Shown: positions 651 to 19,686 of the stretch, in pieces
How the letters are laid out: every line of letters starts with the position of its first letter
Numbering within the stretch: the first letter of the stretch is position 1
IMG/VR virus record: IMGVR_UViG_3300026094_000044
Location: 1-21,227 of that record
Direction: 5' to 3' (one strand)
DNA from: a virus
Length of the DNA stretch: 21,227 nucleotides
Position numbers and translations under genes: made by a program
The notes under the pieces: model-generated
Seen by the model: the letters and a program-made list of their open reading frames with translations, nothing else
Database searches by the model: none
Told to the model about the DNA's origin: nothing

Positions 651-681
<31 letters not shown>

Positions 682-5944: not shown

Positions 5945-6141
5945 AAAATATATCAGAAGGCATTTGGAGTTTCCTCCAAGACATCATTTCAGGAGAAAGT
6001 GCGAGGAAGTCATACATCAACCAACTCAAAAACAGTGACCCGGAAATCCGGGATGCAATCAACCAACTTGAAAAGAACCGTGAAAAGGTCAAGAAAGCAG
6101 TTGACAAAACACGGGAAGATACCGGAATTCGGTTCAAATGA
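5941..6141 (+). CDS. Small protein upstream of the tape measure, unknown function
   Basis: 66 residues, starting at an ATGA overlap with the upstream frame. The N-terminus MKNISEGIWSFLQDIISG could form an amphipathic helix. Residues 30-60 (DPEIRDAINQLEKNREKVKK) are strongly charged and helical, probably a coiled coil. There is no cysteine and no clear membrane segment. Its position between an assembly protein and the tape measure gene suggests a minor tail or assembly function. I recognise no family. Confidence 0.7.
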   Translation: MKNISEGIWSFLQDIISGESARKSYINQLKNSDPEIRDAINQLEKNREKVKKAVDKTREDTGIRFK

Positions 6142-6144
6142 AGA

Positions 6145-6151
6145 TATAAAG
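6145..6151 (+). promoter_or_regulatory. TATAAAG box before the tape measure gene
   Basis: GATATAAAG lies 20 bases before the ATG at 6171. It resembles a T4-type late -10 element, and if used it would give a leader of about a dozen bases. It lies in the 29-base gap after the 66-residue gene. Unconfirmed. Confidence 0.25.
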
Positions 6152-6170
6152 AAATAAAACGCGGTCCAAC

Positions 6171-9100
6171 ATGCCAATCAGCTTTGATCAATTGATGGAA
6201 GGGTTTCAAAACACCTTCGGAAGTTCAGCATCCGGGGGTGTGGGGTCGTCCATGCAACAATTGCAAGAAACCGTTGAGCGATTGGACGAAACTGAACAGG
6301 AACGCGTTGAAAGTGCCGAAATGTTGATTCAAGCCATTGAATCAACTCAAGAAGTTGGACAAGCCGCTTCCCAACAGCTTCCCGATTTTCTATCCTCCAT
6401 TTCCGGGCTTGAAAGCATTGGAGAATCATTCGCAGAAGCGATCATCAGCCCCGAGGTGATTAGAAGCATTGAAAGCACAGAAAATGTTGAAGACTTCACG
6501 AATCTAACCCAAGAGCTTGCGTCATACATCCAACAAGCCAACGATCTCCAAATGCAGTTTGTGGATGGATCCATTGAACGCAAGCAACTTGAAGAAGAGT
6601 TCAACGACCTTCAAGAGCAGACCATTGAAAACCTTCAAGAACAAAATCAAGAACAACAAGAATTTCTCGGACTCTTGGAACAAAACTTTTCAGTGGCCCA
6701 AGATGCTCAACAAGGATTCACAAATCAAATTGAACAAGGACGTGGTGTGTCTGAAGCACTGAACACCGGATTGGGAGACGCGGCGGCTCCCGCATTGCAA
6801 CTTGCAGAAATAGCCACCGGGTGGAAAGACACGATTGCATCAGCATTCAACGTATGGGCACTGGGACTTGCAACGGTTGGACTTGTTATTGCAGAGTTTT
6901 TGACGTTGAACAACGCAACATCAAAATTCGTTGAACAAACGGGGATGAGTGTGGACCAGTCCCAAGAATTGGTTGGAAACCTGACTGAAGTTCGCAGGCA
7001 GGCTGCTCTTTCTGGCCTTGAATTTGACGATTTGGTTGATGCCAGCGTTGAACTCACGGAACAATTTGGAAGCATTCAAGCCGCATCACGCGCACTTCAG
7101 AGCACGCAATCGGAGATCAACCAAGAAGTCACTGCCATTGCAGGGCGTTTGCGAGTGAGTGGAGAGCAAGCAGCCACGTTTGTCACACAGTTTGAAGATG
7201 TTGCAGAACTCACCGGCACAACACGCCGCAGTTTGGAAACGTCGGCCATTCAAGCTGCAAACATTGCGGGGGTTGCTCCAAAAGCGGTGTTTCAAGATAT
7301 TGCAAATAACGCAGAAAAACTTGCCACGTTTTCCGGTCAGAGTGGAGACAAGCTTGCAAGTGCAGCGGCGCGAGCGCGTCAACTCGGAACCAACATTGGA
7401 GAAGTGGTTGGAATTCAAGAACAATTCTTGAGTGACATTCCATCCACGTTTCAAAATATCGCACAGGCAAGCGTGATCACCGGCATTCAGTTTGACGCAC
7501 AAAGTTTGGTTGAAAGTGCAGCCCAAGGAACGGATGAATTTACAGACACATTGTCCCGTGAGTTGGAGCGCATCAACTTTGACGACATGAGTTTCCTTGA
7601 CAAACAAGAGGTTGCAAGCGCGTTCAACATTGGGGTCACGCAGTTGCAACGCATCTCCGAGCAAGCCAAGCAAACGGAAGACAGCGTTGCATCATTGTCA
7701 GAACAAGTGGAGTCTGGCGATGTTAGTTTTGCAGATGCATTTGCTGCAACCGAAAGTTTCACGGCTCTTGAACGGCTTCAAAATCAATTTTCAAGTTTGC
7801 TTTTCACGGTGTCCGAAAATCTTGTTCCTGTGTTTGAAGCATTGGAATCGGTGTTGGGTTTAGTTGCAAGTGGAATTACAGTTGTTGCGGATCTTGTTGC
7901 GCTTCTTTCAGATGGGGTTTCATGGGCAACAACCAACATATCTGATTTCGTGGGACAATCTGAAATGCTGGTGTCTGCATGGTCATCCGTGACTGACATG
8001 TTTGGGGGGGCAATATCTTCTCTTGAAAACGTTCAAAAAACGTCCACCGGCGCAAAAGCAAGTCTTGCCGGGTTTGCATTGGAGTTCCAAAACATTGGAT
8101 CCATTCTTGCAGGGGGGGTCATCGCGACGGGGCTGTTCAAACTTGCAAGTGTTTTTGTGAACACGCTTGGATTTGGTGGTGGCGGTGGTCAAGGAATCAT
8201 CAGCAAATCCATATCTGGATTCGGAAAATTCTTCAAATCTACACTCAAATCCATCAAAGGCGTTCTCACAGGATTCATTGATTTGATCACCGGGGTTCTC
8301 AAAAGCGCATTGACGGGTGTTGCACAAGCATTCACAAGTTTTGCACAGGCGTTGGCTCCCATTGCCAACCCCACAACACTTGCTGGTCTTGCTGCATTTA
8401 CATTAACTGCAATCGGACTTGCAGGTGCATTCAATCTCATGTCAAATGGATTGGCGAACCTGATTGAATCACTTGGACCTGCACGAGAAATTCTTGCAGG
8501 TGGATTTGCCGATGTTCTCAATAATGTGAGTCAAGCATTTTTGACCCTTGCAAACAGTGTGGTTCCTATCATAGAGACGCTGGTTCAAGGATTTTTGAGC
8601 GCGGTTGTTTCGTTGGGACAGACGGCTGTTGATATCTTAGATCGCATGTTTAACGGAATTGTTCAAGTTGCAAGCGCTGGACCCCAAATTGCCGTTGCAG
8701 CAGCAGGAATTGCAGGACTGGCTGGTGCTTTGACCACGTTGACCGCAGGGGGAATCGTTTCCGGGCTTGCAAACTTTGTTGGAATTGGATTCACGGATCA
8801 ATTGGAAAGTATTGCATCTTATGCAGATCCAATCTTGATGGTGTCTAATGCGCTTGAATCATTGGTTTCAAGCATTCAACGTCTTTCTTCTCAAGATATT
8901 CAATCTCAAATATCGGGAATTTCTGAATCGGTTGGAACGGTTGCAGCATCAGCCAACGTGATGACTCCCCAGGCTGTGAATGCAACATCCGAGACAGATC
9001 AAACCATCATCAACAACACCAGCAACCAACAAACGGTTAGGTCGGTAAATCAGAATGAAACATTGGAATCACGCAATAAAGATTCCACGGTTGTAGATGC

Positions 9101-9242
9101 ATTGTCTGCCATCCTTGAGAGCAACAAACAAATTGTACAATTGATCCAACAAGGGGCATTTGATGTTTACTTGGACGGGCGGAAAGTTACAGACCAATTG
9201 CGACGTCGCAACTCAACGAATTCACTCATAGCATCTGGATGA
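6171..9242 (+). CDS. Tail tape measure protein
   Basis: 1023 residues, the longest gene here, placed between assembly protein and baseplate genes as expected. Residues 1-210 are Q/E/S-rich coiled coil (runs such as QEQTIENLQEQNQEQQ). Hydrophobic stretches that could insert in the host membrane on ejection occur near 218-245 (FNVWALGLATVGLVIAEFL), 545-580 (VLGLVASGITVVADLVALL), 640-665 (ILAGGVIATGLFKLASVFV) and 735-760 (LAGLAAFTLTAIGLAGAF). A Gly-rich hinge follows (LGFGGGGGQG, about 665). The C-terminus is basic (LDGRKVTDQLRRRNS), as often seen where the protein meets the tip or baseplate. At about 0.15 nm per residue it predicts a tail near 150 nm. No lysozyme or peptidase domain is apparent. 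It is very likely coexpressed with 9244, whose ATG is 1 base downstream of its stop. Confidence 0.9.
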   Translation: MPISFDQLMEGFQNTFGSSASGGVGSSMQQLQETVERLDETEQERVESAEMLIQAIESTQEVGQAASQQLPDFLSSISGLESIGESFAEAIISPEVIRSIESTENVEDFTNLTQELASYIQQANDLQMQFVDGSIERKQLEEEFNDLQEQTIENLQEQNQEQQEFLGLLEQNFSVAQDAQQGFTNQIEQGRGVSEALNTGLGDAAAPALQLAEIATGWKDTIASAFNVWALGLATVGLVIAEFLTLNNATSKFVEQTGMSVDQSQELVGNLTEVRRQAALSGLEFDDLVDASVELTEQFGSIQAASRALQSTQSEINQEVTAIAGRLRVSGEQAATFVTQFEDVAELTGTTRRSLETSAIQAANIAGVAPKAVFQDIANNAEKLATFSGQSGDKLASAAARARQLGTNIGEVVGIQEQFLSDIPSTFQNIAQASVITGIQFDAQSLVESAAQGTDEFTDTLSRELERINFDDMSFLDKQEVASAFNIGVTQLQRISEQAKQTEDSVASLSEQVESGDVSFADAFAATESFTALERLQNQFSSLLFTVSENLVPVFEALESVLGLVASGITVVADLVALLSDGVSWATTNISDFVGQSEMLVSAWSSVTDMFGGAISSLENVQKTSTGAKASLAGFALEFQNIGSILAGGVIATGLFKLASVFVNTLGFGGGGGQGIISKSISGFGKFFKSTLKSIKGVLTGFIDLITGVLKSALTGVAQAFTSFAQALAPIANPTTLAGLAAFTLTAIGLAGAFNLMSNGLANLIESLGPAREILAGGFADVLNNVSQAFLTLANSVVPIIETLVQGFLSAVVSLGQTAVDILDRMFNGIVQVASAGPQIAVAAAGIAGLAGALTTLTAGGIVSGLANFVGIGFTDQLESIASYADPILMVSNALESLVSSIQRLSSQDIQSQISGISESVGTVAASANVMTPQAVNATSETDQTIINNTSNQQTVRSVNQNETLESRNKDSTVVDALSAILESNKQIVQLIQQGAFDVYLDGRKVTDQLRRRNSTNSLIASG

Positions 9243-9243
9243 T

Positions 9244-11721
9244 ATGTCAAATTTCAAAGACTTGCTTATCGGCATTCCAAAACAGTCTGGGAACATCCAA
9301 CGCCAAGATCCTGATATTGATCCGTCTTTAGATCAATCTTCTAACGAATCGCAACGCCCAAATATAACCGTTCCGAGTCCTGCTGAACCTCAACCCGGAC
9401 AAACCCCCGAAATTCCTGAACAAGCTGGGAATATTGAATCCCAAGATCCGAATGTTGGATTTCCACGTGACGCGAATGTTCAGCAACAAGCCCCGGATGT
9501 ATCACGCGAACGAAATATCCCATCGTTAGTTCGGGAGGTGAACATTCCATTTGTTGAAAATCGGGGAAACATTGTTTCTGAATCTATTGATGGTGTTTCC
9601 ACCGAACCACGAAGTCTTGAAGTGTCACAAAACCCGTTGTCAGACCCAACCGAATTGAAATCCTCTGACCAAGAAACCCCGGAAACCGATCCCCGCGTCC
9701 AAGAAGTTCCACGGCGCAATCAGATCGTGCCACAAGATCATGATTTGGAGTTGGCTGTTCAAGAAGGCAACATCCAAGTCCAATCGGTTGATGATATTCA
9801 ATATCAACCGCCCGATAATTTTCGTGATGATGACAATTTTCAAGTGGACATTTCGGATCAAGAAATTGAACGAGAATCGCAGCGAGTGAATATCCCAGAA
9901 CAGCGGATAATTTCACCCCAAGATCCGGGCGTTTCCGAGACCATCCCATCCGACAACACACAAGATCCCGATGGAGTTCGGGAATCAGAGAATTCGGGAT
10001 CTCTTTCCACAATTGATGATTTGGACATTCAAGAACGCTCTGAATCTCGTTTGGATGAACAAAATCAGCAAGCCCGAGATCAAGAATTTGAGAAGTTTGA
10101 TTTGGGTGGGCGATTCCAAGAACCCTTTGTGACCGTGAGACCTGACAGCACACGAGCAGATATTCCGGCGGGCACTCCTGCAATTCCAGGACGTGCAGCA
10201 GCCGATGATCAGCAACGTCTTGGAACGTTTCTTGCAAGCCCAAAGGGCATTTTATTTTCTGCTGAAGAAGCGACCAAGCAAACACAAAATACACGCCGCC
10301 TCACCCGGTTTTATGATCCGGCAGCCATTCGCAATTCGGCACCCACGTGGTTGGTATCTGACACACGCCACGTGGATGCAAGCGAAGGCATTCTTGGAAA
10401 TATCGTGAATGGCATCGGCGGTCTCACGGAAGCAATTTCAGACATTGGAAATGTTCCCAAAAGCAGCAAGTGGGAAGATGAAATCCGTGATCTCACGGAT
10501 GGTGAAGGGTATCTTGTCAATCAGACACCCGATTTGGGCGGCCCCGGAAACATTCCAAACCGAATTACAGGAGCCGAATACAGACAGCGAGCACAAACCA
10601 TTCTTGCAAACCAAGTGCAAAGTTTGCGACCTGACTTTTTCAGCCGTCTTCCGGATGGGCTTCAGAAATTCCAAGCCGAACAGCAAGCCATTCTTGATGG
10701 AGAACGCAATCAATTTATTGGAATGAGAACCCGATCAGGATCCCAGATTGCATTCAACCGTTTGGGAATCCAAGAACGTCCAAGTCAAGAGTTGTTTGAT
10801 GCGTATAACCCAATACGAACGTATCAAGTGTTTCTTGACAATGAATATGATGGAGGTCAACAAAGCCCGCTCTTGGAGCGCACGCGACGTGAAGCAGAAG
10901 CCCGTGATGCAAAATCATATGGTAATGTGGATGCTCAGGAAAATGCTGTGAGTCCATTCCATCCAGCAGTTCAGGGCGAGCCGCCGGAAGATGCGCCCCG
11001 TGATGAAACGTTTCAAGGCGATGAAACATATCGTGTTGTGTATCGCAGAAAGTCAAGCGGAGAAACATCGTATGGGTATCCAAATCACTCGGTATCTGAA
11101 AAGGATGAAGATTTGGTTAATTTAACTGGAATTGAGGATGTGTCTTCGGATGATGATCCGGACGTGCTGACCAATGATCAGGGGGAAGAATTTCAAGACA
11201 TCATTCCGCTTCGCTTTTACGACATTGTCAACAACAAGCGAATCGCATTCCGTAGCTATGTGTCGGGTATCAGCGTTAGCAACAGCGTAAACTGGAACAG
11301 TACACAATACATTGGAAGACCCGAGCAATATCATATTTATGGGGGGAACAGCAGACAACTTAGTTTTAGCTTTACTGCATTTGCCGGATCTCAAAAAGAA
11401 TTGGAGTCGCAGTGGACAAAATTGAATTACCTGCAAAGTCTTGTTTATCCAAGCAATTTTTCAACGTTGGAAGGAGGTGGTGCATACATGATTGCACCAT
11501 TTTTGCGTCTCACCATAGGAAACTTATACCGAAAACATCCCGGATTCATTCAAAGTTTGGATTTCACAATGCCGGATGATAGTCCGTGGGAAACCGCCGC
11601 AGGCCGCCAACTGCCAAAACAGGTTGAAATTTCAACCACATACACACTCATTGAACGTGAATTCCCAAACGCAGGGGACAAGTATTTTGATGCTGACATC
11701 ATTCCCGATGAAAGTTTGTGA
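9244..11721 (+). CDS. Baseplate-associated protein with long disordered repetitive N-terminus
   Basis: 825 residues in two very different parts. Residues 1-300 are acidic, Q/N/D/P-rich and repetitive, with degenerate units of the type GNIxxQDPxV (SGNIQRQDPDI, AGNIESQDPNV, EGNIQVQS, NIPEQRIISPQDPGV), most likely disordered. Residues about 315-350 (DDQQRLGTFLASPKGILFSA and onward) begin a structured section. The C-terminal 190 residues (from about 645: FQDIIPLRFYDIVNNKRIAF; ISVSNSVNWNSTQYIGRPEQ; YGGNSRQLSFSFTAFA; APFLRLTIGNLY) resemble a conserved baseplate protein of marine T4-like phages that I know only as structural. The position between tape measure and LysM/hub genes supports a baseplate or tail tube initiation role. 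The stop of the tape measure gene is directly before its ATG. Confidence 0.75.
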   Translation: MSNFKDLLIGIPKQSGNIQRQDPDIDPSLDQSSNESQRPNITVPSPAEPQPGQTPEIPEQAGNIESQDPNVGFPRDANVQQQAPDVSRERNIPSLVREVNIPFVENRGNIVSESIDGVSTEPRSLEVSQNPLSDPTELKSSDQETPETDPRVQEVPRRNQIVPQDHDLELAVQEGNIQVQSVDDIQYQPPDNFRDDDNFQVDISDQEIERESQRVNIPEQRIISPQDPGVSETIPSDNTQDPDGVRESENSGSLSTIDDLDIQERSESRLDEQNQQARDQEFEKFDLGGRFQEPFVTVRPDSTRADIPAGTPAIPGRAAADDQQRLGTFLASPKGILFSAEEATKQTQNTRRLTRFYDPAAIRNSAPTWLVSDTRHVDASEGILGNIVNGIGGLTEAISDIGNVPKSSKWEDEIRDLTDGEGYLVNQTPDLGGPGNIPNRITGAEYRQRAQTILANQVQSLRPDFFSRLPDGLQKFQAEQQAILDGERNQFIGMRTRSGSQIAFNRLGIQERPSQELFDAYNPIRTYQVFLDNEYDGGQQSPLLERTRREAEARDAKSYGNVDAQENAVSPFHPAVQGEPPEDAPRDETFQGDETYRVVYRRKSSGETSYGYPNHSVSEKDEDLVNLTGIEDVSSDDDPDVLTNDQGEEFQDIIPLRFYDIVNNKRIAFRSYVSGISVSNSVNWNSTQYIGRPEQYHIYGGNSRQLSFSFTAFAGSQKELESQWTKLNYLQSLVYPSNFSTLEGGGAYMIAPFLRLTIGNLYRKHPGFIQSLDFTMPDDSPWETAAGRQLPKQVEISTTYTLIEREFPNAGDKYFDADIIPDESL

Positions 11722-11755
11722 AAAAAATCACTATTTCCACACCAATCCTTGTTAT

Positions 11756-11779
11756 ACACACACACACACACACACACAC
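11756..11779 (+). repeat. (AC)12 tract before the 11784 start
   Basis: Twelve perfect AC dinucleotides end 4 bases before the ATG at 11784 (CCAA between). Together with the tracts at 652-679 and 1051-1062 this makes three pure CA tracts, all placed directly upstream of a start codon on the coding strand. Confidence 0.9.
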
Positions 11780-11783
11780 CCAA

Positions 11784-12020
11784 ATGACTTTATTCCAATC
11801 CAGCATGCCCATGAAACACGTTGACCACATCACGCTAAAATTCAGTATTGGATTTACCAGACACGACTCATGCAGTGTTGAACTTGGTGAACAAATCGTG
11901 TGGGCCATGTACGATGAAATCAAAGATAAGTTTTCAGAACACGGAGAAATTGTCAATATCACAGTTAAGAATCGCCATGATCAAACTATGGAGGTGTATG
12001 ACATCACTCACAAGGATTGA
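11784..12020 (+). CDS. Small protein, unknown function
   Basis: 78 residues from the ATG at 11784. An upstream in-frame ATG at 11718 would read through the CA tract as HTHTHTHT and is rejected as a start. The protein has a beta-like part (ITLKFSIGFTRHDSCSVELG) and a helix (EQIVWAMYDEIKDKFSEHG), then strands (EIVNITVKNR); this is a small alpha/beta fold with no motif I recognise. Internal ATGs at 11808 and 11814 are alternative starts. It sits between two baseplate genes but may be an unrelated insert, since it has its own CA-tract leader like the accessory genes. Confidence 0.6.
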   Translation: MTLFQSSMPMKHVDHITLKFSIGFTRHDSCSVELGEQIVWAMYDEIKDKFSEHGEIVNITVKNRHDQTMEVYDITHKD

Positions 12021-12040
12021 AAACGCCAAGAATATAACTC

Positions 12041-12346
12041 ATGAACGGAAGATACAGAAACAACTCAATACAAACAAAGCCCAATGAAGAAACTCGTGTG
12101 TTCAGCAGTACGATCCTTCCTGATTTTGATCGTATGAATATTGAATTTACTCACGTCCTGGTAGAATATGGAGATCGGTTAGACCTTGTTGCAAAGCGTT
12201 ATTATGATGATAGCACGTTGTGGTGGATCATTGCAAGGGCTAACAATGTGTCGGATTTTTTCGTTGACAGCCAAACGCAGCTTAGAATCCCACGGCGCAA
12301 TGAAGTATCTCGGATTCTACGACGATTAGATCAACTCAATTCGTGA
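12041..12346 (+). CDS. LysM baseplate protein, T4 gp53-like
   Basis: 101 residues. The LysM-type core runs from about 38 to 88: VEYGDRLDLVAKRYYDDSTL, then WWIIARANNVSDFF and LRIPRR. In T4-like phages this wedge component (gp53) joins hub and wedges; P2-like phages have the analogous tail protein X. The N-terminal 35 residues are a flexible arm. It lies 16 bases before the hub gene, which is the usual neighbour. There is no Shine-Dalgarno sequence. Confidence in the LysM domain is high; exact equivalence to gp53 is inferred. Confidence 0.8.
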   Translation: MNGRYRNNSIQTKPNEETRVFSSTILPDFDRMNIEFTHVLVEYGDRLDLVAKRYYDDSTLWWIIARANNVSDFFVDSQTQLRIPRRNEVSRILRRLDQLNS

Positions 12347-12362
12347 ACCCAACACAAAAATC

Positions 12363-14351
12363 ATGGAACTCCTTTATCCGCTTCCCAAGTTTATTCAAGA
12401 CGAGCTTGATTTGCGCAAAAACAACACACAGAGATTTCAACAACCACGAACACCGTGGTTCCGATTCATCTCCAATGTCCAACCGGAAGGACAGCCCGAA
12501 GGGAAAATTCTATCCAGTGGAACGTATCAGTTTGGACAAAGTCAACCACAAGGAGGATTTTTCCAGCAGTACGATGGCGAACGGGGCGGCGCATTGCGTC
12601 CGGAACCGGGTGCAGAAAGTATATCCATTGAATATCAAAATAGCTATCTTGATGTTACTGTGAACTGGAAATGTTGGACACCCAATCAGTTTGAAGAACT
12701 GATTCCATATTTCATGGTTCCTGGAAACACGGTGATCGTTGATTTTGGGTGGCAAGATGCACCCGCTGGAATTGAATTGGACGTTAATGATCAACAAGCG
12801 CGACGGGAGTTGTTCACAGCAGGTCAAGTCAAGGGACAACCGTATACCGTCAATCCTGAAACCGTGAACGAAAACCGTCCGCTGTTTCCTATTGTTCGGT
12901 ACGAGAAACGCGGGCAAGGCCGTTATGGCATCTTTGCGGGGCAAATCAGTGGATTTGACGCGTCATACAATTCCGATGGTGGGTTTGATTGTCAGACCAA
13001 ATTCACGGCTCCCAATGCCAGTATGCTCGGAATTCAGATTCGGAATCAATTTGAACGACGAAATTCCAACAACGAAAAAAAGAAACCCACCGTCTTTGAA
13101 TATCTGTGGGAGGATTCCATTGCTGAAAATGACTTTGAGACTGCATTGTCATCACCCCGGCGGGTTCAAAGTGCAAAGGGAGGGAACTTGGTTCGCATTG
13201 ATGAATATTCATTCATGAGTTGGGGGTTTTTTGAAGAAAATGTCATCAACCAACATCTTGGAGTGGAGGATGACAATATTGAGATATACCGATTCAACAA
13301 CAAAAACACGATTGTCGGATATTATCCCAATCTTCTTACAACCGATTTGAGAAAATGCATGGTGGCACCGCAAAGTGGAACTGGAAATGGTCTTGATTTA
13401 TCGGGATTCCGTGAAAAACCGTTTGGTGGGACACCACAAGAAAGCGCCCCGGATCTTCCCAACAACCGAACTGGATACCTATGGAATCTTTACTTGAACA
13501 TTGATTTCGTCAAACAAGTGTTCAAAGAAGAGACGTTGATTGTGGATGCGATTGAACGCATTCTCCAAGCGTGCAGCATTTCATGTTTCAAGATATGGAA
13601 CTTTTCAATTCAAATAGAAGGAAACGTGTTGACCGTCGTGGATTTGAATTCACCCATTCAATCTGCTGACGAAAGTCGGGACACGTCATATGAGTTTTTC
13701 CCGTATACAACAGACACCATTGTTGATGATTTCAGTTTCAACTTTGATTTGGACAGTGTGTTCCAAGCGCAAATGTTCATTGGAACTCAACTCAATGAAA
13801 CGGGAAGTGAAGAAGGTGGCATCTTCAATGGCAAAAAAGGTGTATTGCAAGAAGTGTTTGGGAGCATCCGAGACCCCATTCGTGAAAACCTTGTGCGAAG
13901 CGGCAATGAAAAAGCATCGCCGCAAAATAGTTCATCCGCTGTAGAAGAGGCATTGAAACGCCCGCTCACAGACCTTGACTTTCAAGCCCAACAAAACGTT
14001 TCTCAAGGAACAGCAACAGAGCAAGAAATCAAACTGGGATATAAAAGACCGTCATTGGATGGATATGTTTATTCATCAGATGAAGCAGACGAATTCAAGC
14101 AACAAGTTCTGAATGATACATCACCCAGTTCCCCCCGGAACTCAAACCAAGTTGTTCCTGTAACCGTGGATCTCACCATCCAAGGTATTAGCGGCATTCG
14201 TTCGTTCCAAAGCATCAAAGTTGCAAATCTTCCACGTCCATTCAAAGGAGGTGTGTACCAGATCAACAGCGTGTCGCACAACATCAGCCGAGATGGATGG
14301 ACAACCAGTCTTTCAGCCAATTTTGTGACTTCAAACCCGCTTGCTTCATGA
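12363..14351 (+). CDS. Baseplate hub protein, gp27-like
   Basis: 662 residues. The segment SISIEYQNSYLDVTVNWKCW (about 84-103), then FEELIPYFMVPGNTVIVDFGW (about 108-128) matches the first tube-like domain of gp27-type hubs in marine myoviruses (a strand-rich domain followed by a long-range motif for length-setting of the orifice). The C-terminus (PFKGGVYQINSVSHNISRDG, then WTTSLSANFVTSNPL) is the typical end of hub proteins, where the last strand follows a GW(T/S) turn. The middle (about 470-560) is low complexity and poorly conserved. In T4 the gp27 trimer connects tube, spike (gp5) and wedges. No separate lysozyme domain is visible. The stop overlaps the next start as ATGA. Confidence 0.75.
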   Translation: MELLYPLPKFIQDELDLRKNNTQRFQQPRTPWFRFISNVQPEGQPEGKILSSGTYQFGQSQPQGGFFQQYDGERGGALRPEPGAESISIEYQNSYLDVTVNWKCWTPNQFEELIPYFMVPGNTVIVDFGWQDAPAGIELDVNDQQARRELFTAGQVKGQPYTVNPETVNENRPLFPIVRYEKRGQGRYGIFAGQISGFDASYNSDGGFDCQTKFTAPNASMLGIQIRNQFERRNSNNEKKKPTVFEYLWEDSIAENDFETALSSPRRVQSAKGGNLVRIDEYSFMSWGFFEENVINQHLGVEDDNIEIYRFNNKNTIVGYYPNLLTTDLRKCMVAPQSGTGNGLDLSGFREKPFGGTPQESAPDLPNNRTGYLWNLYLNIDFVKQVFKEETLIVDAIERILQACSISCFKIWNFSIQIEGNVLTVVDLNSPIQSADESRDTSYEFFPYTTDTIVDDFSFNFDLDSVFQAQMFIGTQLNETGSEEGGIFNGKKGVLQEVFGSIRDPIRENLVRSGNEKASPQNSSSAVEEALKRPLTDLDFQAQQNVSQGTATEQEIKLGYKRPSLDGYVYSSDEADEFKQQVLNDTSPSSPRNSNQVVPVTVDLTIQGISGIRSFQSIKVANLPRPFKGGVYQINSVSHNISRDGWTTSLSANFVTSNPLAS

Positions 14352-14791
14352 AAAATCAATACAAACGTACACAGGCATCCATTTTTTCGGAAGAAATTTA
14401 TGATCCCAAGCAACCGCGTACTGTTTCCCCCAAGCCCACTGAACAAGATTATCAGCGGGGGTACATGACCCGGTATTTCTTGAAGCGACGCCACCCCGCA
14501 AAACGCCTGCCATTTGAAGTTGACGAACGGCAATATCAGAGTTGGGCATTGCGAGGCCGTGGGATCTCTCAAAAAGAATACCAAGCAATCGTGGTGAAAT
14601 GGAGAATTCGGGGATCTGTGGAACCCGTTGACAATGATCTCGGTTATCCCATTGAACGAGGCGTTCGGGAAACCAATAAACGATTGATTGAACGCGTATA
14701 CGAACCAGAAATGAGTGGCATCAGTCGCGTTCTCGGAAATAACCTGTTGCAATATCACAATAATTCATTTTCACCAAATGGAAATCCTTGA
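14348..14791 (+). CDS. Conserved hub-associated phage protein, unknown function
   Basis: 147 residues from the ATG at 14348, chosen because ATGA overlaps the hub stop; the in-frame ATG at 14297 lies inside the hub gene. Conserved-looking parts are GYMTRYFLKRRHPAKRLPFE (about 38-57), ISQKEYQAIVVKWRIRGSV (about 75-93) and GVRETNKRLIERVYEPEMSG (about 104-123). The pattern (RYF, a WRI/LTG-like strand, GVRxxN) is one I recall next to hub or baseplate genes in marine T4-like phages, with no assigned function. Probably a small baseplate or assembly component. It overlaps the polymerase gene by 14 bases. Confidence 0.7.
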   Translation: MKNQYKRTQASIFSEEIYDPKQPRTVSPKPTEQDYQRGYMTRYFLKRRHPAKRLPFEVDERQYQSWALRGRGISQKEYQAIVVKWRIRGSVEPVDNDLGYPIERGVRETNKRLIERVYEPEMSGISRVLGNNLLQYHNNSFSPNGNP

Positions 14792-16145
14792 AGATCACAC
14801 GACAAAATTTCTAAGTTCTATTGCAACCACAACATGCCCTGTTGTGGTTTTTGCATTCCCAACCAGTTACGACATCCATCCCAAAATGGATCACCTTAAC
14901 TTGATTTACATCAAAACGTTGGATGGGCACGAATGGCTTGTTCCTGGAATGCATCATGAAGGAGTGTCCGTGTGTGATGATGAATTTCTTGATGGCTTGA
15001 ATGTTGCTCTGGATGGTGTTGATGCATGGACCATCAACAAAAAGCAACTGTTGCATCTGACATCCGGTGCGGTTTCCAATATAGATGATATCAATCTTTA
15101 TCAGCATTCAAACGGCGCATCCATCATCACGTCTCACATCAAATTTCCACCGCGCTTCAAAAAGTTGTATCGCCCACTTTCGCACGTGCCCATTTATCAC
15201 ATCGTCTCACAAGCCCGTCAGATGGCTTCTAACGCGTTCAAAGTTTTGCGTGAGGCTGACCCCATAAAAAGAGATTCGTCTTATTCTCGGCACCACAGTC
15301 ACGTTCTCATGCCATTTTACACGATGGAACGAGTTGGAATTCATGTTGACCGAGACGTGTTCATTGAAAAATACGGAAAATCAAAGGCCCACCTTATTGA
15401 TGACGATTCCCTTGTATACCCGAGTTACGATCTATACAACACATCCACGGGACGCCCGAGCAATGCATTTGGGGGCGTGAACTATGCCGCGATCAACAAA
15501 TCAGATGGAACGCGAAAAGCATACACATCCCGGTTCCCAAACGGAACATTGGCATCATATGACTATGATGCATTTCATCTTCGTCTCATCTCAAAATTGA
15601 TTGATGGGGACCCACTTGCCAAATTATCATATGACACCAATGTTCATGAGCACTTTGGAACCGCGTATTACTTCAAGACATCATCATCATTAACTCCTGA
15701 TCAATACAAAGAATCCAAGAAAAGAAGTTTTAGCAACCTATATGGAACTGTGAACCCGAGTGTTGCTTTATCCGGGTTCTTTGCAGATGTAAAAACGTTC
15801 AAACAACGATTGTGGAACGCATATCAGCGATACGGTCACATCCAAACACCCATTTTCAAAAGACGCATCAGTGATATTGAAGACCCGTCCACATCAAAAG
15901 TGTTTAACTACATGCTCCAAGCCTTTGAATTGGAAGTCATGTCCATTGTCATGAAACGTTTGCAATCAACACTGGACATGGATGGCGTGAATCTTTGCAT
16001 GTACACGTATGATTCACTATTATTTGACATTTCTCAAGAGAGAGACACTCCAGATTTACATGATACCATATTCAAGGTCATGGAATGGAATGGAATCAAG
16101 GTAAAATGCACCAAAACTCAAGAATCATACCATGATCTTGGATAG
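14778..16145 (+). CDS. Short divergent family A DNA polymerase
   Basis: 455 residues from the ATG at 14778; an ATG at 14715 would add 21 residues read out of the upstream gene and is not used. Polymerase motifs are in order: NTSTGRPSN (221-229); motif A YDYDAFHLRL (261-270), D262 being the metal-binding Asp; motif B KESKKRSFSNLYG (311-323) with K314, F318, Y322; motif C MYTYDSLLFDI (408-418) with D412. Compared with E. coli Pol I, the steric-gate Glu710 position is His267, Arg754 is replaced by Tyr/Lys, and motif C HDE is YDS. The N-terminal 190 residues show no DxE exonuclease motif. It may be a repair, translesion or accessory polymerase, or the replicative enzyme with proofreading elsewhere. 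T4 itself uses a family B enzyme, so this is an unusual pairing with T4-type tail genes. Confidence 0.8.
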   Translation: MEILEDHTTKFLSSIATTTCPVVVFAFPTSYDIHPKMDHLNLIYIKTLDGHEWLVPGMHHEGVSVCDDEFLDGLNVALDGVDAWTINKKQLLHLTSGAVSNIDDINLYQHSNGASIITSHIKFPPRFKKLYRPLSHVPIYHIVSQARQMASNAFKVLREADPIKRDSSYSRHHSHVLMPFYTMERVGIHVDRDVFIEKYGKSKAHLIDDDSLVYPSYDLYNTSTGRPSNAFGGVNYAAINKSDGTRKAYTSRFPNGTLASYDYDAFHLRLISKLIDGDPLAKLSYDTNVHEHFGTAYYFKTSSSLTPDQYKESKKRSFSNLYGTVNPSVALSGFFADVKTFKQRLWNAYQRYGHIQTPIFKRRISDIEDPSTSKVFNYMLQAFELEVMSIVMKRLQSTLDMDGVNLCMYTYDSLLFDISQERDTPDLHDTIFKVMEWNGIKVKCTKTQESYHDLG

Positions 16146-16172
16146 ATGATGGTGGATATTTTGTTTGCTGGG

Positions 16173-16180
16173 TATATAAA
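16173..16180 (+). promoter_or_regulatory. TATATAAA box, possible promoter
   Basis: GGTATATAAAATC lies 28 bases after the polymerase stop and about 175 bases before the ATG at 16355. It is one of several TATAAA-like boxes in gene gaps. If it is used, the transcript has a long leader with two hairpins (16201-16218 and 16267-16315). Confidence 0.25.
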
Positions 16181-16200
16181 ATCAACAAACGTGTGTTTTA

Positions 16201-16315
16201 TGTGAAAAAGTTTTCACATTCGCATATATGATGTTATCATCATCATCATCATTATTATTCGCATTTTTTCAAACTCAAACACGCGCGATGCATTTTGTCG
16301 TGCTTGAGTTTGAAA
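16201..16315 (+). promoter_or_regulatory. Structured leader of the 16355 gene
   Basis: Three elements occur in order. Hairpin TGTGAAAA/AG/TTTTCACA spans 16201-16218 (8 bp). A trinucleotide tract (ATC)5(ATT)3 lies at 16236-16259. A long inverted repeat has TTTCAAACTCAA at 16267-16278 pairing with TTGAGTTTGAAA at 16304-16315, extended inward by 4 more pairs after one mismatch. The last hairpin has its T run on the 5' side (16264-16269) and no U-tract after it, so it is not a terminator on either strand. It could be a regulatory 5' UTR or a protein-binding site. The rest of the 209-base gap is featureless. Confidence 0.55.
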
Positions 16316-16354: not shown

Positions 16355-16774
16355 ATGTCAAGTCAACTGTTATGCACCTTCACCAATGAAGATGATGTAG
16401 AGGAAACACTTTCGGATATTCAAAATCACTATGACGTGATCTTTGGCAAAATCTTTGTTCTTCAAGACAAGGAAAATCCGGATGATCTGTTTTGCACATA
16501 CAACATTGAGAAAAGGCAGGAGGAGCACAAAAGAAATCGTTTGGACAAAACGATCAGCATTCATAGAAAAAAGGAAACAAACACGATCTATACGATCAAC
16601 GCATTGAATAGCTTGATTATCATGCTTAATGGGAGAATTGATGAAACGTATCCTGTTCCCTGGGAAAATTACCAGAACGAGATTTTACTGACCATCAATG
16701 GATCCCTCCGTGAAATCCCAACAAAACTGTATGATATCAGGCACCTTGATGACCAACACACTGACAGTTTTTGA
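16355..16774 (+). CDS. Conserved phage protein, unknown function
   Basis: 139 residues. Recognisable blocks are LLCTFTNEDDVEETLSDIQN (5-24), KIFVLQDKENPDDLFCTYNI (32-51), ISIHRKKETNTIYTINALNS (67-86) and LREIPTKLYDI (118-128). The combination HRKKxTNTxYTINALN is, from memory, a signature of a protein common in T4-like marine phages but without known role. It has no membrane segment and is rich in Asn/Thr. The leader is A/C-rich (aactaacccacaaataaa) with no Shine-Dalgarno sequence. It is followed by a very strong terminator and the convergent UVDE gene. Confidence 0.75.
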   Translation: MSSQLLCTFTNEDDVEETLSDIQNHYDVIFGKIFVLQDKENPDDLFCTYNIEKRQEEHKRNRLDKTISIHRKKETNTIYTINALNSLIIMLNGRIDETYPVPWENYQNEILLTINGSLREIPTKLYDIRHLDDQHTDSF

Positions 16775-16821
16775 TCCGAACGTCTTCACACCACTTCTTT
16801 ATTTTTTTCGTATGCACACAC

Positions 16822-16872
16822 CACGGAAAAGCGTGATCCTTTCAACGAAGGTCACGCTTTTCCGTGTTTTTT
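16822..16872 (+). terminator. Strong intrinsic terminator between convergent genes
   Basis: A perfect 15-bp stem, CACGGAAAAGCGTGA (16822-16836) with TCACGCTTTTCCGTG (16852-16866), has a small inner stem CCTT/AAGG in the loop and TTTTTT after it. It ends the plus-strand transcript. On the minus strand the same stem directly follows the UVDE stop but is followed by GTGTGTGC, not a U-tract, so it would not terminate efficiently that way. The last U-tract base overlaps the UVDE stop codon. Confidence 0.92.
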
Positions 16873-17792
16873 CACTGGATTTCATCAACATATTTCAACA
16901 AAGCTTGTTCCTTCATCTTGCTTTCCAGCATAATGTCCACGTCACGATTCCGGGTATTCGGAAATGCTGTATAGTAGTAATCAGAATGAGCATTGATCCG
17001 AGAACGTGGATCTTCAAACAACTGACGGCTTTCTGAATGATGGACCACAGGCGTCACATCATCGGGCCATGTAGACAATGCGGCATCCAATGCATCTTCG
17101 TCACTCAATGATCCGGGGTTGCACTCGTGATGCAAACTGTCAAACACAACGGGAATCTCTGAACCCAACCAACCCACCAACTCTTTCACCGTGAACATGT
17201 TAGGACCATCATCATTTTCAACTGTCAACCGGGACCGGACCGACTCATTCAAATCGTTCATGACGGTGTCAATAAACCGCAGAGCCGTTTTCTTCTTGTT
17301 TCCATATGCCCCCCCAACATGGATGTTCAAACTGCTGAACGGACTCCTGGGCATCCCCATCACATCAAACACTTTGGCTTGTTGTTTCAACGTGCGAACA
17401 GACTTGTCAATGAGTTTTTGGTTGCCCTTGCTTGCGAGTTTGACAAAATGATCTGGATGCTGAGTGATGCGTTGATCTGTCTGCCGTGCAACCTCACCTG
17501 CGTCAACCAATCGTGGAACAATCTTCGTCTCCCATCCTGGAAGATCCTCAAACTCGTACCAATCAATGAACGGAAACATGCTTGATGACATTCGGAAGAA
17601 CCTAATGTCATGTTCTGAATTCCACTTCAAAATATCAACCAGATCCGAAGCATTCTGATAAATCAAGCTGGAGACATATGACAATCCCCGCTCGTTGAAT
17701 GTCCGTTTGACCAAACCCCGGTTTGTTGTGACCCCTTGCTCTTTGAGTTCTGTGTTGATGCAGGCATATCCAATTCTCATGTCGTCTGTCAT
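16872..17792 (-). CDS. UV damage endonuclease, UvdE/UVDE family
   Basis: 306 residues on the minus strand, the only gene of that strand here. UVDE is a TIM-barrel enzyme that cuts DNA 5' of UV photoproducts and abasic sites, starting an alternative excision repair. Family motifs are present throughout: MRIGYACIN (5-13), RFFRMSSSMFPF (64-75), HPDHFVKLAS (112-121), NIHVGGAYGNK (156-166), LTVENDD (189-195), VVFDSLHHECNP (215-226), VVHHSES (249-255), HSDYY (269-273), and DVDIMLESKMKEQALLK (284-300). The metal-binding His/Glu/Asp set appears complete, so it should be active. Either Met1 or Met5 may be the start. A minicistron, ATG to TGA, overlaps its ATG (17803-17789). It likely protects phage DNA from sunlight damage. 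Confidence 0.92.
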   Translation of the reverse strand: MTDDMRIGYACINTELKEQGVTTNRGLVKRTFNERGLSYVSSLIYQNASDLVDILKWNSEHDIRFFRMSSSMFPFIDWYEFEDLPGWETKIVPRLVDAGEVARQTDQRITQHPDHFVKLASKGNQKLIDKSVRTLKQQAKVFDVMGMPRSPFSSLNIHVGGAYGNKKKTALRFIDTVMNDLNESVRSRLTVENDDGPNMFTVKELVGWLGSEIPVVFDSLHHECNPGSLSDEDALDAALSTWPDDVTPVVHHSESRQLFEDPRSRINAHSDYYYTAFPNTRNRDVDIMLESKMKEQALLKYVDEIQ

Positions 17793-17820
17793 TGACGTCT
17801 CATTCTTGTGAACACTCCTT
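17789..17820 (-). promoter_or_regulatory. Shine-Dalgarno and minicistron coupled to UVDE
   Basis: On the minus strand AAGGAG (17820-17815), the only clear Shine-Dalgarno sequence I found at a gene start here, is 11 bases before an ATG (17803) that encodes just MRRQ and a TGA (17791-17789). The TGA overlaps the UVDE ATG (17792) as ATGA. UVDE itself is 22 bases from the AAGGAG, too far for direct use. This suggests reinitiation coupling; chance is possible. Confidence 0.4.
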
Positions 17821-17944
17821 CAACCCAAATCACAAACGTGGTGTTCCGCCAAAGTCTTCACTGAATCATGAATCCGTGTTGTGTTTTCCAACTCGTGTGA
17901 ACTTATGGAACTGAACTGAAATGAATAGAATGGAAGCTATAAAA

Positions 17945-17959
17945 CACTACACTACACTA
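17945..17959 (+). repeat. Short (CACTA)3 tandem repeat
   Basis: Three perfect CACTA units, preceded by a TATAAAA box (17938-17944), lie just to the left of the iteron-like array. The gap from 17793 to here contains no other feature I recognise beyond the UVDE leader. Confidence 0.6.
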
Positions 17960-17988
17960 CATACTATCTGTTTCACACACAACGTGAA

Positions 17989-18608
17989 CCATATAGTGTC
18001 ACAGGGAAATCATACATCGTGCTACACGTACCATGTAGTGACAAAGGGAAACCTGACTTGAGTGTAGTTGATATGAACCATATAGTGTCACAGGTGATGA
18101 AGTGCGATGCACAACCATATAGTGACACAGGGGAATCATATACCGTACCATGTAGTGTCACTGGGGTTGGGTTTCACACATAACCATATAGTGACACAGG
18201 GAAACCATATAGTGTCACAGGGAGACACACAATACCATACCATATAGTGTCACAGGGAAACCATATAGTGTCACAGGTGATGAACGGACAACCATATAGT
18301 GACACTGGGGTTGGATTTCACAAACACAAAGCATAACCATGCAGTGACACAGGTGTTGGTGATGAACGGATAACCATATAGTGCCACAGGGAAGACACAC
18401 AGAGCACATACTATATAATGTCACTGGGAAACTATACCATGTGGTGTCACAGGTGTTGAGATGGATTGGACAACCATATAGTGACACAGGGAAATGAGAT
18501 TCAAGTGTGATTGATATGAACCATGTAATGACACAGGGGAGACATGCATTGGATCCACCATATAGTTACACTGGGGTTGGTGGTGGATAACCATATAATG
18601 TCACAGGG
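17989..18608 (+). repeat. Iteron-like array, 18 copies of CCATATAGTGwCACAGGG
   Basis: Eighteen copies of an 18-bp element on one strand start at 17989, 18031, 18078, 18115, 18148, 18184, 18205, 18240, 18261, 18292, 18337, 18374, 18411, 18437, 18474, 18521, 18558 and 18591. The least changed parts are CCAT and GTGwCAC; the tail is AGGG, AGGT or TGGG. Start-to-start spacing varies from 21 to 47 bases. Spacers are not unique: TTGATATGAACCAT occurs at 18067 and 18511, and GATGAACGGA before two copies (18274, 18361). GTGwCAC is itself palindromic about w. The array fills the gap between UVDE (minus) and gp32 (plus). Candidate roles are replication origin iterons, a partition or packaging site, or an operator array. 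Irregular spacing and degenerate non-unique spacers argue against CRISPR. Confidence 0.9.
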
Positions 18609-18676
18609 CAAGGCAAAAGAATCTTCAATACATCATATCTTAATACACGCTTAACCGTGTCTTCACATAAGAATTC

Positions 18677-18706
18677 TTGTTGGGCTTCTATATATGGGTG
18701 TACAAT
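18677..18706 (+). promoter_or_regulatory. Possible sigma70-like promoter for gp32
   Basis: TTGTTG (18677-18682), 18-base spacer, TACAAT (18701-18706), about 95 bases before the gp32 ATG at 18802. The -10 matches five of six consensus bases; the -35 is weak. The region between the array and gp32 (18609-18801) otherwise contains a small ACACG/CGTGT hairpin near 18640-18660 and A/C-rich leader. Confidence 0.35.
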
Positions 18707-18801
18707 ATGAGACAAGGCAACAGACAAGCCAACCTCTCAAAAGTTTTCATACGCCACCACAAAGGCAATTTAAACACTCATTAAACACTCTTTAGAACAA
18801 T

Positions 18802-19686
18802 ATGTCAGGTTTCAGTATTGATACCTCCAGTCTCAAAAATACACTTAACCGTTTGGACAACAAGCGAAGCAAAGGGGACCACATCTGGAAGCCAAATGAA
18901 GGCACTCAAAAAATTCGTCTTGTGCCTTACAAGTACAACAAGAACAATCCGTTCATTGAACTTCTCTTCCATTACAATATCCCCGGAAAAAATTGGTTGA
19001 GTCCTGCAAGTGACCCCATCGGAGATCGTGATCCAATTTACGAGTTCACACAGAAACTCAAGAATCTTGGAGACACCAAAAGTTACAACCTTGCACGGGA
19101 AATTGAACCCAAATTACGCACATATGCACCTGTTGTCGTGAGAGGTGAAGAAGATCAAGGTGTTCGGTATTGGGGATTTGGAAAGACCATTTATAAAAAG
19201 CTCGTGACAATGCTTCTTGATGAAGATCAAGGAGATTACATTGACCCCATCAATGGAATGGATCTCAAGGTCAAGTACATCCCAAGGGAGCAATCGCCAA
19301 CCCAGTTCCCACAAACCGAGATCAGCCCGGTGTTCAAGCAAGTTCCCTTGACAGAGAATGAAAACCAATTGGAATCGTGGCTTGAAAATCAGGTCAAGAT
19401 CACCGAAGTGTTTGATATTCCAACCGAAGAACAGCTGCTTGAAATTCTTGAAGACTTCAAGAATGCTCAGTTTGACGAAGATCGCTACAATGAAATGAAG
19501 CGCAATCAAGTCATGGGTTATGGTTTCGTGACCGACGATGAACTTGAAGGTGATGATGATGAAACCGGTTCGGCAACTGCTGAATCAAGCGTGGATTCAT
19601 CGTCCAATGGTTCCGCCCAAGAAACTGAAGTCATGGAAGATGACATGGACAACCTTGACGACGAACTTGATGCATTTCTTGGTTGA
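18802..19686 (+). CDS. Single-stranded DNA-binding protein, T4 gp32-like
   Basis: 294 residues. The N-terminal arm (about 1-25) ends in a basic stretch NKRSKGDHIWKPNEGTQKIR that corresponds to the gp32 cooperative-binding arm and the start of the core. The core has RLVPYKYNKNNPFIELLFHY (about 36-55) and YAPVVVRGEEDQGVRYWGFG (about 109-128), typical of marine T4-like gp32. T4 gp32 binds zinc through three Cys and one His; this protein has no cysteine at all, so the zinc site is lost. The C-terminus (DDDETGSATAESS, then DDMDNLDDELDAFLG) is an acidic tail that in T4 recruits polymerase and recombination partners. It lies directly before recA, the usual functional partner. There is no Shine-Dalgarno sequence. 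Confidence 0.88.
   Translation: MSGFSIDTSSLKNTLNRLDNKRSKGDHIWKPNEGTQKIRLVPYKYNKNNPFIELLFHYNIPGKNWLSPASDPIGDRDPIYEFTQKLKNLGDTKSYNLAREIEPKLRTYAPVVVRGEEDQGVRYWGFGKTIYKKLVTMLLDEDQGDYIDPINGMDLKVKYIPREQSPTQFPQTEISPVFKQVPLTENENQLESWLENQVKITEVFDIPTEEQLLEILEDFKNAQFDEDRYNEMKRNQVMGYGFVTDDELEGDDDETGSATAESSVDSSSNGSAQETEVMEDDMDNLDDELDAFLG

What the first reader, a model, noticed from the sequence alone, without database searches (positions are those of the whole stretch)
17989..18608. Array of 18 iteron-like elements between UVDE and gp32
Seen: 18 direct copies of CCATATAGTGwCACAGGG in about 620 bp, with irregular spacing (21-47 bp), non-unique spacers and a palindromic GTGwCAC core. Known: phage and plasmid replication origins and partition sites often consist of direct iterons beside replication genes, and tandem operators control divergent promoters. 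Inference: an origin, a partition or pairing site, or a multi-site operator. T4-like phages are not known to me for such arrays.
Basis: partly seen in the sequence, partly recalled or inferred. Interest (0 to 1): 0.8.

Follow-up and report, generated by a model that had tools for sequence, protein, structure and literature searches.

The report
Repeated protein-binding-site arrays in giant phage
A very large virus of bacteria carries a cluster of 18 near-identical 18-letter DNA sites between a DNA-repair gene and its replication genes, with further copies at one and probably two other places in its genome, most likely a landing strip for an unknown DNA-binding protein that controls the genes that follow, although a replication start is not excluded.

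Summary
Eighteen co-oriented copies of CCATATAGTGWCACAGGG (extended consensus WACCATATAGTGWCACAGGGRW) lie at 17989-18608 and nowhere else in the window; chance expectation is zero. An independent contig reproduces 16 copies exactly. The conserved unit is the element (86% pairwise identity), not the related spacers (about 65%). RNA folding is at chance level, the palindromic GTGWCAC core has a symmetric centre (9 T, 8 A), and the next-best match in 59 kb scores 10.5 bits against 27-36. This is a set of DNA sites for a protein.

The array is not unique. The phage is a relative of the 484-kb huge phage LR756508. A contig from the same metagenome, colinear and adjacent, ends in at least two copies 62 bp upstream of the neck/tail-sheath operon and shares array 1's terminal module of about 83 bp. 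A probable third site is on a contig of matching composition. All three point along transcription. LR756508 lacks the element, and none of 128 relatives with the same 139-aa ORF-to-gp32 order has an array there.

Best reading: a duplicated cis-regulatory cassette (operator or activator array) at operon heads. Rivals: iteron origin, partition site, neutral satellite. No partner protein was found, so function is inferred.

The parts
17989..18608 (+). Array 1: 18 direct copies of CCATATAGTGWCACAGGG, irregularly spaced
   Evidence: 0 expected by chance; 16 copies identical in an independent contig
17987..18008 (+). element copy 1 with conserved edges (AACCATATAGTGTCACAGGGAA)
   Evidence: PWM 36.0 bits
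18031..18048 (+). element copy 2
18078..18095 (+). element copy 3 (contig G001 begins here)
18115..18132 (+). element copy 4
18148..18165 (+). element copy 5
18184..18201 (+). element copy 6
18205..18222 (+). element copy 7 (21 bp after copy 6)
18240..18257 (+). element copy 8
18261..18278 (+). element copy 9 (21 bp after copy 8)
18292..18309 (+). element copy 10
18337..18354 (+). element copy 11; a 28-bp stretch around it (AAAGCATAACCATGYAGTGWCACAGGTG) recurs in G007 with 2 differences
18374..18391 (+). element copy 12
18411..18428 (+). element copy 13 (most divergent, 26.8 bits)
18437..18454 (+). element copy 14
18474..18491 (+). element copy 15
18521..18538 (+). element copy 16
18558..18575 (+). 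element copy 17
18591..18608 (+). element copy 18 (last, 193 bp before the gp32 start)
18556..18638 (+). terminal module shared with array 2 (L184): last two elements, their spacer and AGAATCWTCAAT..TCATAT
   Evidence: local alignment of about 83 bp, blastn E 2.7e-7; the 3' flank alone p about 0.01
16872..17792 (-). UVDE (UV-damage endonuclease), 306 aa, leftward; the only clear minus-strand gene in the joined 59 kb
   Evidence: ORF; Pfam UvdE 1.2e-52; orientation survey
17793..17988 (.). gap between the UVDE start and copy 1, AT-richest point 30% GC
18609..18801 (+). gap between copy 18 and gp32, 36-40% GC; would hold the gp32 promoter
   Evidence: promoter inferred
18802..19686 (+). gp32-like ssDNA-binding protein, first gene of the replication operon (RecA with intein, 5'-3' exonuclease, DnaB helicase, RNR, PolB, clamp-loader ATPase follow on G001)
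16355..16774 (+). 139-aa conserved ORF that normally sits directly before gp32

Best explanation
The array is a cis-acting cluster of binding sites for one sequence-specific DNA-binding protein of the phage (or its host) that reads a two-fold symmetric GTGWCAC core plus asymmetric flanks. It exists as a duplicated cassette in at least two, probably three, intergenic gaps of a huge T4-type phage, always pointing along transcription, with a conserved end on the gene side. The most likely job is transcriptional: cooperative loading of the protein on many sites makes an operator or upstream-activating array that sets the output or timing of the operon that follows (gp32 and the replisome at array 1; neck and tail-sheath genes at array 2). 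Shown: the sites, their number, polarity, selective conservation, DNA-level nature, recurrence at other loci, shared terminal module, absence from relatives. Inferred: the binding protein, cooperativity, and the transcriptional effect.
For: 18 copies, 0 expected. Elements 86% identical pairwise, related spacers about 65%, so selection acts on the element. Centre base 9T/8A/1C while most other positions are near-invariant, as expected for a dyad. No RNA structure above chance on either strand (z -0.30 and +0.78). PWM scores 27-36 bits at the sites, next best 10.5 in 59 kb. Second array with at least 2 copies (36-bp period) whose last copy ends 62 bp before the start codon of a neck-type gene heading the tail-sheath operon, same orientation as transcription. 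That contig (L184) and the window's left neighbour (G002) are from one metagenome and colinear with LR756508 at 201.0-208.4 kb, 139 bp apart. Arrays 1 and 2 share the last two elements plus about 25 bp downstream. Third site scores 33.6 bits on G007, whose tetranucleotide profile correlates 0.71-0.75 with the window phage against 0.73-0.80 within it and 0-0.44 with others.
Against: No promoter could be placed with confidence: sigma-70-like sites are at chance level (6 found, 4.4 expected) and the host is unknown. No regulator family (HTH, RHH, ParB, Rep) turned up among 91 smaller ORFs of the held contigs (the second lists only its top 25 families). Eighteen copies is far more than known phage operators need. 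Site 3 lies just 3' of a fibre/baseplate gene and what follows it is unknown. Only about 97 kb of a probably 300-500-kb genome is in hand.
Confidence: 0.4

Rival explanations
1. Iteron-type replication origin(s): an initiator binds the iterons and melts the AT-rich flank; replication starts at the divergent UVDE/gp32 junction, and the other arrays are further origins, as T4 has at least five.
For: Array 1 heads the replisome operon and sits at the only clear divergent gene pair in 59 kb; the cumulative GC-skew minimum of the joined contig coincides with UVDE/array; flanks are AT-richer (30-40% GC); T4 oriE has a cluster of 12-nt direct repeats and T4 origins E, F and G lie near points of transcriptional divergence (PMC3016281).
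Against: The skew dip is largely where the minus-strand UVDE lies, and third-position skew does not change sign; LR756508 shows uniform skew with no inflection at gp32; no Rep_3 initiator in the held contigs or LR756508; array 2 leaves only 62 bp to a tail gene; absent in all relatives examined.
Confidence: 0.25
2. Partition, pairing or genome-organising site (centromere-like): a ParB/ParR/TubR-like protein loads on the arrays to segregate, cluster or compact the large phage chromosome.
For: Many direct repeats in several clusters on one chromosome resemble multi-cluster centromeres; extrachromosomal mycobacterial prophages carry parS loci with five direct repeats (PMC7157519).
Against: No ParB_N match in any held contig of this phage; only a sub-threshold match (18.9 bits) in LR756508; no par operon beside array 1; nothing suggests plasmid-like or lysogenic life.
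Confidence: 0.1
3. Neutral or selfish satellite: the array grew by unequal recombination and was copied to other gaps without function.
For: Spacers are related in classes, so the array did grow by segment duplication; it is lineage-specific and sits in an insertion hot spot; contigs break at arrays, a sign of repeat instability.
Against: Elements are more conserved than the related spacers between them (86% against about 65%), which copying alone does not give; a symmetric centre position and uniform orientation at all sites.
Confidence: 0.17
4. Tandem promoters of a phage RNA polymerase (each element one promoter; GTGACAC recalls the SP6 promoter).
For: All copies point towards the downstream operon; TATAGT/TATAAT inside the element; the resemblance to SP6 is from memory only.
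Against: No single-subunit RNA polymerase (PF00940) match in the held contigs or LR756508 (its control genomes gave no match either, so weak); 18 tandem promoters would be unusual; elements are not found singly before other genes.
Confidence: 0.06

Closest known systems
T4 oriE iterons (12-nt direct repeats, T4-type phages)
   Same: Direct repeats in a T4-type phage, near replication functions; role still undefined (PMC3016281)
   Different: T4 repeats are 12 nt and evenly spaced; here 18 bp, unevenly spaced, with a palindromic core, 18 copies, and a second array before tail genes
Stoperators/operators of cluster A mycobacteriophages
   Same: More than 20 short asymmetric sites in promoter regions and intergenic gaps of one phage, orientation correlated with transcription (PMC9283540)
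   Different: 13-bp sites bound by a monomeric repressor and spread through the genome; here dense clusters of up to 18 and no repressor gene found
Mobile regulatory cassettes (PeSL) of T4-type phages (Arbiol et al. 2010; content from memory, paper not held)
   Same: Intergenic regulatory cassettes that recur in one genome at junctions where genes are swapped
   Different: PeSLs carry an early promoter and a stem-loop; this array shows no RNA structure above chance
Iteron origins of plasmids and P1/lambda-type phages
   Same: Clustered direct repeats of about 18-22 bp read by a dedicated protein
   Different: No linked initiator gene found; arrays at more than one operon
Uncultured huge phage LR756508 (484 kb)
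   Same: Closest long genome: colinear gene order, 26-69% protein identity
   Different: Has neither UVDE at this junction nor the element at any of the three orthologous places

Membership tests
Iteron-type replication origin | cluster of direct repeats of about 17-22 bp | tested here: met
Iteron-type replication origin | cognate initiator gene linked to the repeats | tested here: not met
   no Rep_3 match in the five held contigs or LR756508; no Rep family among 91 ORFs; the full genome is not held
Iteron-type replication origin | AT-rich unwinding region and compositional shift at the site | tested here: inconclusive
   flanks 30-40% GC; cumulative GC-skew minimum at the site but GC3 skew unchanged
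Iteron-type replication origin | initiation of DNA synthesis at the site | not testable with these tools
   needs read-depth or nascent-DNA data
[quoted passage not shown]
   18-bp elements, spacing 21-47 bp
Partition (parS/parC/tubC) site | adjacent par operon (ParA/ParB, ParM/ParR, TubZ/TubR) | tested here: not met
   neighbours are UVDE and gp32; no ParB_N in the held contigs
Stoperator/operator system | asymmetric sites oriented with transcription in intergenic gaps | tested here: met
   all copies at the three sites are co-directional with neighbouring genes
Stoperator/operator system | mostly single sites dispersed over the genome | tested here: not met
   no site outside the array in 59 kb
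Stoperator/operator system | repressor that binds the site | not testable with these tools
   no candidate found in the held contigs
CRISPR array | uniform repeat of 23 bp or more with unique spacers of uniform length | tested here: not met
   18-bp element, spacers of 3-29 bp that are related to each other
PeSL cassette | stem-loop in the intergenic cassette | tested here: not met
   RNA folds no better than shuffles on either strand
T7/SP6-type promoter array | single-subunit RNA polymerase encoded by the phage | tested here: inconclusive
   no PF00940 match, but the control genomes did not ring either

The most novel reading that the evidence does not exclude
A lineage of huge T4-type phages uses a dedicated DNA-binding protein loaded on several dense, same-orientation arrays of an 18-bp dyad-centred site to switch or spatially organise whole operons (replisome, neck/sheath, baseplate/fibre): a genome-wide array-based control or chromosome-organising system not described for T4-type phages.
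Probability: 0.2. Interest if true: 0.75.

Novelty: new variant of a known kind. Interest (0 to 1): 0.5.

Why it matters
How huge phages of 300-500 kb time the expression of replication and virion operons, or start replication, is largely unknown. A recurrent, high-copy site is a direct handle: its protein can be fished with a short DNA, and the complete genome would show the whole regulon. The role of the T4 oriE iterons is also unresolved, so a second, larger iteron-like array next to T4-type replication genes gives a comparison.

Tried and rejected
CRISPR array: rejected by irregular related spacers. RNA leader or riboswitch-like element: no fold above chance, no Rfam match. Coding repeat: spacings are not multiples of three; repeats found by the same detector in the relatives of the site-2 gene region were, with few exceptions, codon-periodic. 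Link to UVDE: L106 carries UVDE at the same junction on the + strand, with gp32 only 84 bp after the match and no array; UVDE loci L011-L015 have no such array. Host or other genome copies: one match in 257 Gb of bacterial and archaeal genomes (Roseomonas), below chance expectation. Single matches in unrelated viral contigs (L183, L185-L195, L197-L199) taken as chance. Helical phasing: spacings fit 5.25 bp (R 0.60, p about 0.002), but the period was chosen among several and spacings are inherited by duplication, so not relied on. A search for the contig left of array 2 found none from that metagenome. Literature searches gave no report of this element.

Full report
OBSERVATION. The array is real and correctly placed: 18 co-oriented copies of CCATATAGTGWCACAGGG within 3 mismatches between 17989 and 18608, none elsewhere in the window, none expected in shuffles. 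Spacings are 21-47 bp. The conserved unit is slightly longer, WACCATATAGTGWCACAGGGRW. An independent IMG/VR contig (3300008963_000006, 39,163 bp, here G001) begins at copy 3 and is identical to the window over 3,152 bp; it has copies 3-18 and no others. The same metagenome's contig G002 matches the window's left part at 99.9% (4 mismatches and 2 gaps in 16.9 kb; the gap examined is a change in CA-repeat length) and adds 2 kb on the left.

NATURE OF THE REPEAT. Elements are 86% identical pairwise, while spacers that can still be recognised as related are about 65% identical. The array therefore grew by segment duplication, and the elements were then kept while the spacers drifted. The core GTGWCAC is a perfect odd palindrome; its centre is 9 T, 8 A, 1 C, whereas most other core positions are near-invariant. 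That is the signature of two-fold symmetric recognition with additional asymmetric contacts (CCATATA on the left, AGGG on the right). Neither strand folds as RNA better than shuffles, and Rfam is silent. A weight matrix separates the array copies (26.8-36.4 bits) from everything else in 59 kb (next best 10.5). I conclude that it is a DNA site for a protein.

GENOME CONTEXT. Right of the array the contig continues gp32, RecA (with intein), 5'-3' exonuclease, DnaB helicase, ribonucleotide reductase (intein), PolB (intein) and a clamp-loader ATPase. Left are UVDE on the minus strand, a conserved 139-aa ORF, a PolA-like gene and tail genes. UVDE is the only clear minus-strand gene in the joined 59 kb. 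The nearest long genome is the uncultured 484-kb phage LR756508: the window phage's proteins map to it in order from 201 kb to 251 kb, and largely in order on to about 328 kb, at 26-69% identity. In LR756508 the 139-aa ORF and gp32 are separated by only about 0.2 kb, with no UVDE and no array, and the element scores at background level over the whole 484 kb (best 11.7 bits).

THE ELEMENT RECURS. A scan of IMG/VR with relaxed patterns found two further relevant contigs. L184 (3300008963_000372, 4,488 bp, the same metagenome as G001 and G002) begins, on its coding strand, with at least two 36-bp units holding AACCATATAGTGTCACTGGGG; the last element ends 62 bp before a 163-aa gene, followed by a 292-aa gene, a tail sheath and a second, truncated sheath. 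Its end and the start of G002 map 139 bp apart on LR756508 (205,946-206,203 and 206,342-208,417), so L184, G002, the window and G001 are one genome, with array 2 about 25 kb upstream of array 1. Arrays 1 and 2 share more than the element: the last two elements, their spacer and the following AGAATCWTCAAT..TCATAT align over about 83 bp (the flank alone p about 0.01), so the array is a duplicated cassette with a fixed gene-side end. The third site is on G007 (3300026094_000018, 33.5 kb): AACCATGTAGTGTCACAGGTGA, 33.6 bits, at the contig end next to 17 tandem CCACTTA units and just 3' of a 1,266-aa gene of a baseplate operon, co-oriented with it. G007's baseplate wedge is 50% identical to LR756508, and its tetranucleotide profile correlates 0.71-0.75 with the window phage, as well as parts of that phage correlate with each other (0.73-0.80), against 0-0.44 for other phages. 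It is the same phage or a very close one; in contrast to the window phage it has no long CA repeats, so I do not insist on the same species. At all three sites at least one assembly breaks at or beside the element, so copies are probably under-counted.

RELATIVES. gp32 and 139-aa-ORF searches gave 160 loci. In 128 both genes are present in the same order: 94 have gaps of 56-244 bp, and 34 have inserted sequence of 526-3,868 bp, mostly plus-strand ORFs. None has an array there. L106 has a UVDE at exactly this junction, on the plus strand and without an array, so UVDE and array are independent tenants of an insertion hot spot. The array is therefore a lineage-specific addition.

MECHANISM. The data fit a multi-site binding array for one protein. 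I favour transcriptional control because arrays 1 and 2 stand at the heads of operons, point along transcription, and share their gene-side end, and because array 2 is too close to its gene to leave room for much besides a promoter. The origin reading is the main rival: array 1 is at the divergent point next to the replisome genes; the cumulative GC-skew minimum falls there; and T4, which uses at least five origins, has direct repeats at oriE whose role is still undefined (PMC3016281). Against it, third-position skew does not change sign, LR756508 shows no inflection, and no Rep_3 initiator is in the held contigs. Partition lacks any ParB_N match in this phage's contigs. A neutral satellite does not explain elements more conserved than their own spacers. 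None of the 91 smaller ORFs of the held contigs matched a known DNA-binding regulator family in Pfam (PHROGs top families likewise), but most of the genome is not in hand.

LIMITS. The host is unknown, no expression or read-depth data could be used, the genome is incomplete, and the two assemblies of the array are identical, so no within-population variation tests the selection claim. The estimate of genome size (300-500 kb) rests only on colinearity with LR756508. Probabilities are judgements.

Noticed in passing
window 652-679 and about 11,750-11,780; further runs on G001: Long (CA)n or (TG)n microsatellites (7 of 6 units or more in 59 kb), several directly before start codons; the one at 652-679 differs in length between two assemblies of the same phage. 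LR756508 has one in 484 kb, G007 none.
   Followed up: partly
L018:3961-12007 (G001 24.0-32.0 kb): Cluster with a NeuB-type sialic-acid synthase (1e-61), two GT29-family sialyltransferase-like proteins (5e-26 and 4e-9), a CMP-sugar-synthetase-like ORF (by eye only), two group-1 glycosyltransferases and a sulfotransferase-like protein: unusual cargo for a phage.
   Followed up: partly
L017:1718-3319, 6058-9996, 11475-16240: Inteins interrupting RecA, ribonucleotide reductase and PolB: an intein-rich replication operon (intein splicing domain matched in RecA; the others by reading the sequence).
   Followed up: no
window 16775-18801: The junction between the 139-aa ORF and gp32 is an insertion hot spot across the clade: 34 of 128 relatives carry extra sequence there; L106 carries UVDE in the opposite orientation.
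   Followed up: yes
L201:1-118 (G007): 17 tandem units of CCACTTA at the contig end, directly abutting a copy of the element.
   Followed up: no
L011/L012:1582-1993: tmRNA gene predicted in viral contigs that also carry a UVDE relative.
   Followed up: no
window 14715-16145 and L017:11475-16240: The phage encodes both a short PolA-like protein (weak DNA_pol_A match, 1e-8) and a PolB-type replicative polymerase colinear with LR756508.
   Followed up: no
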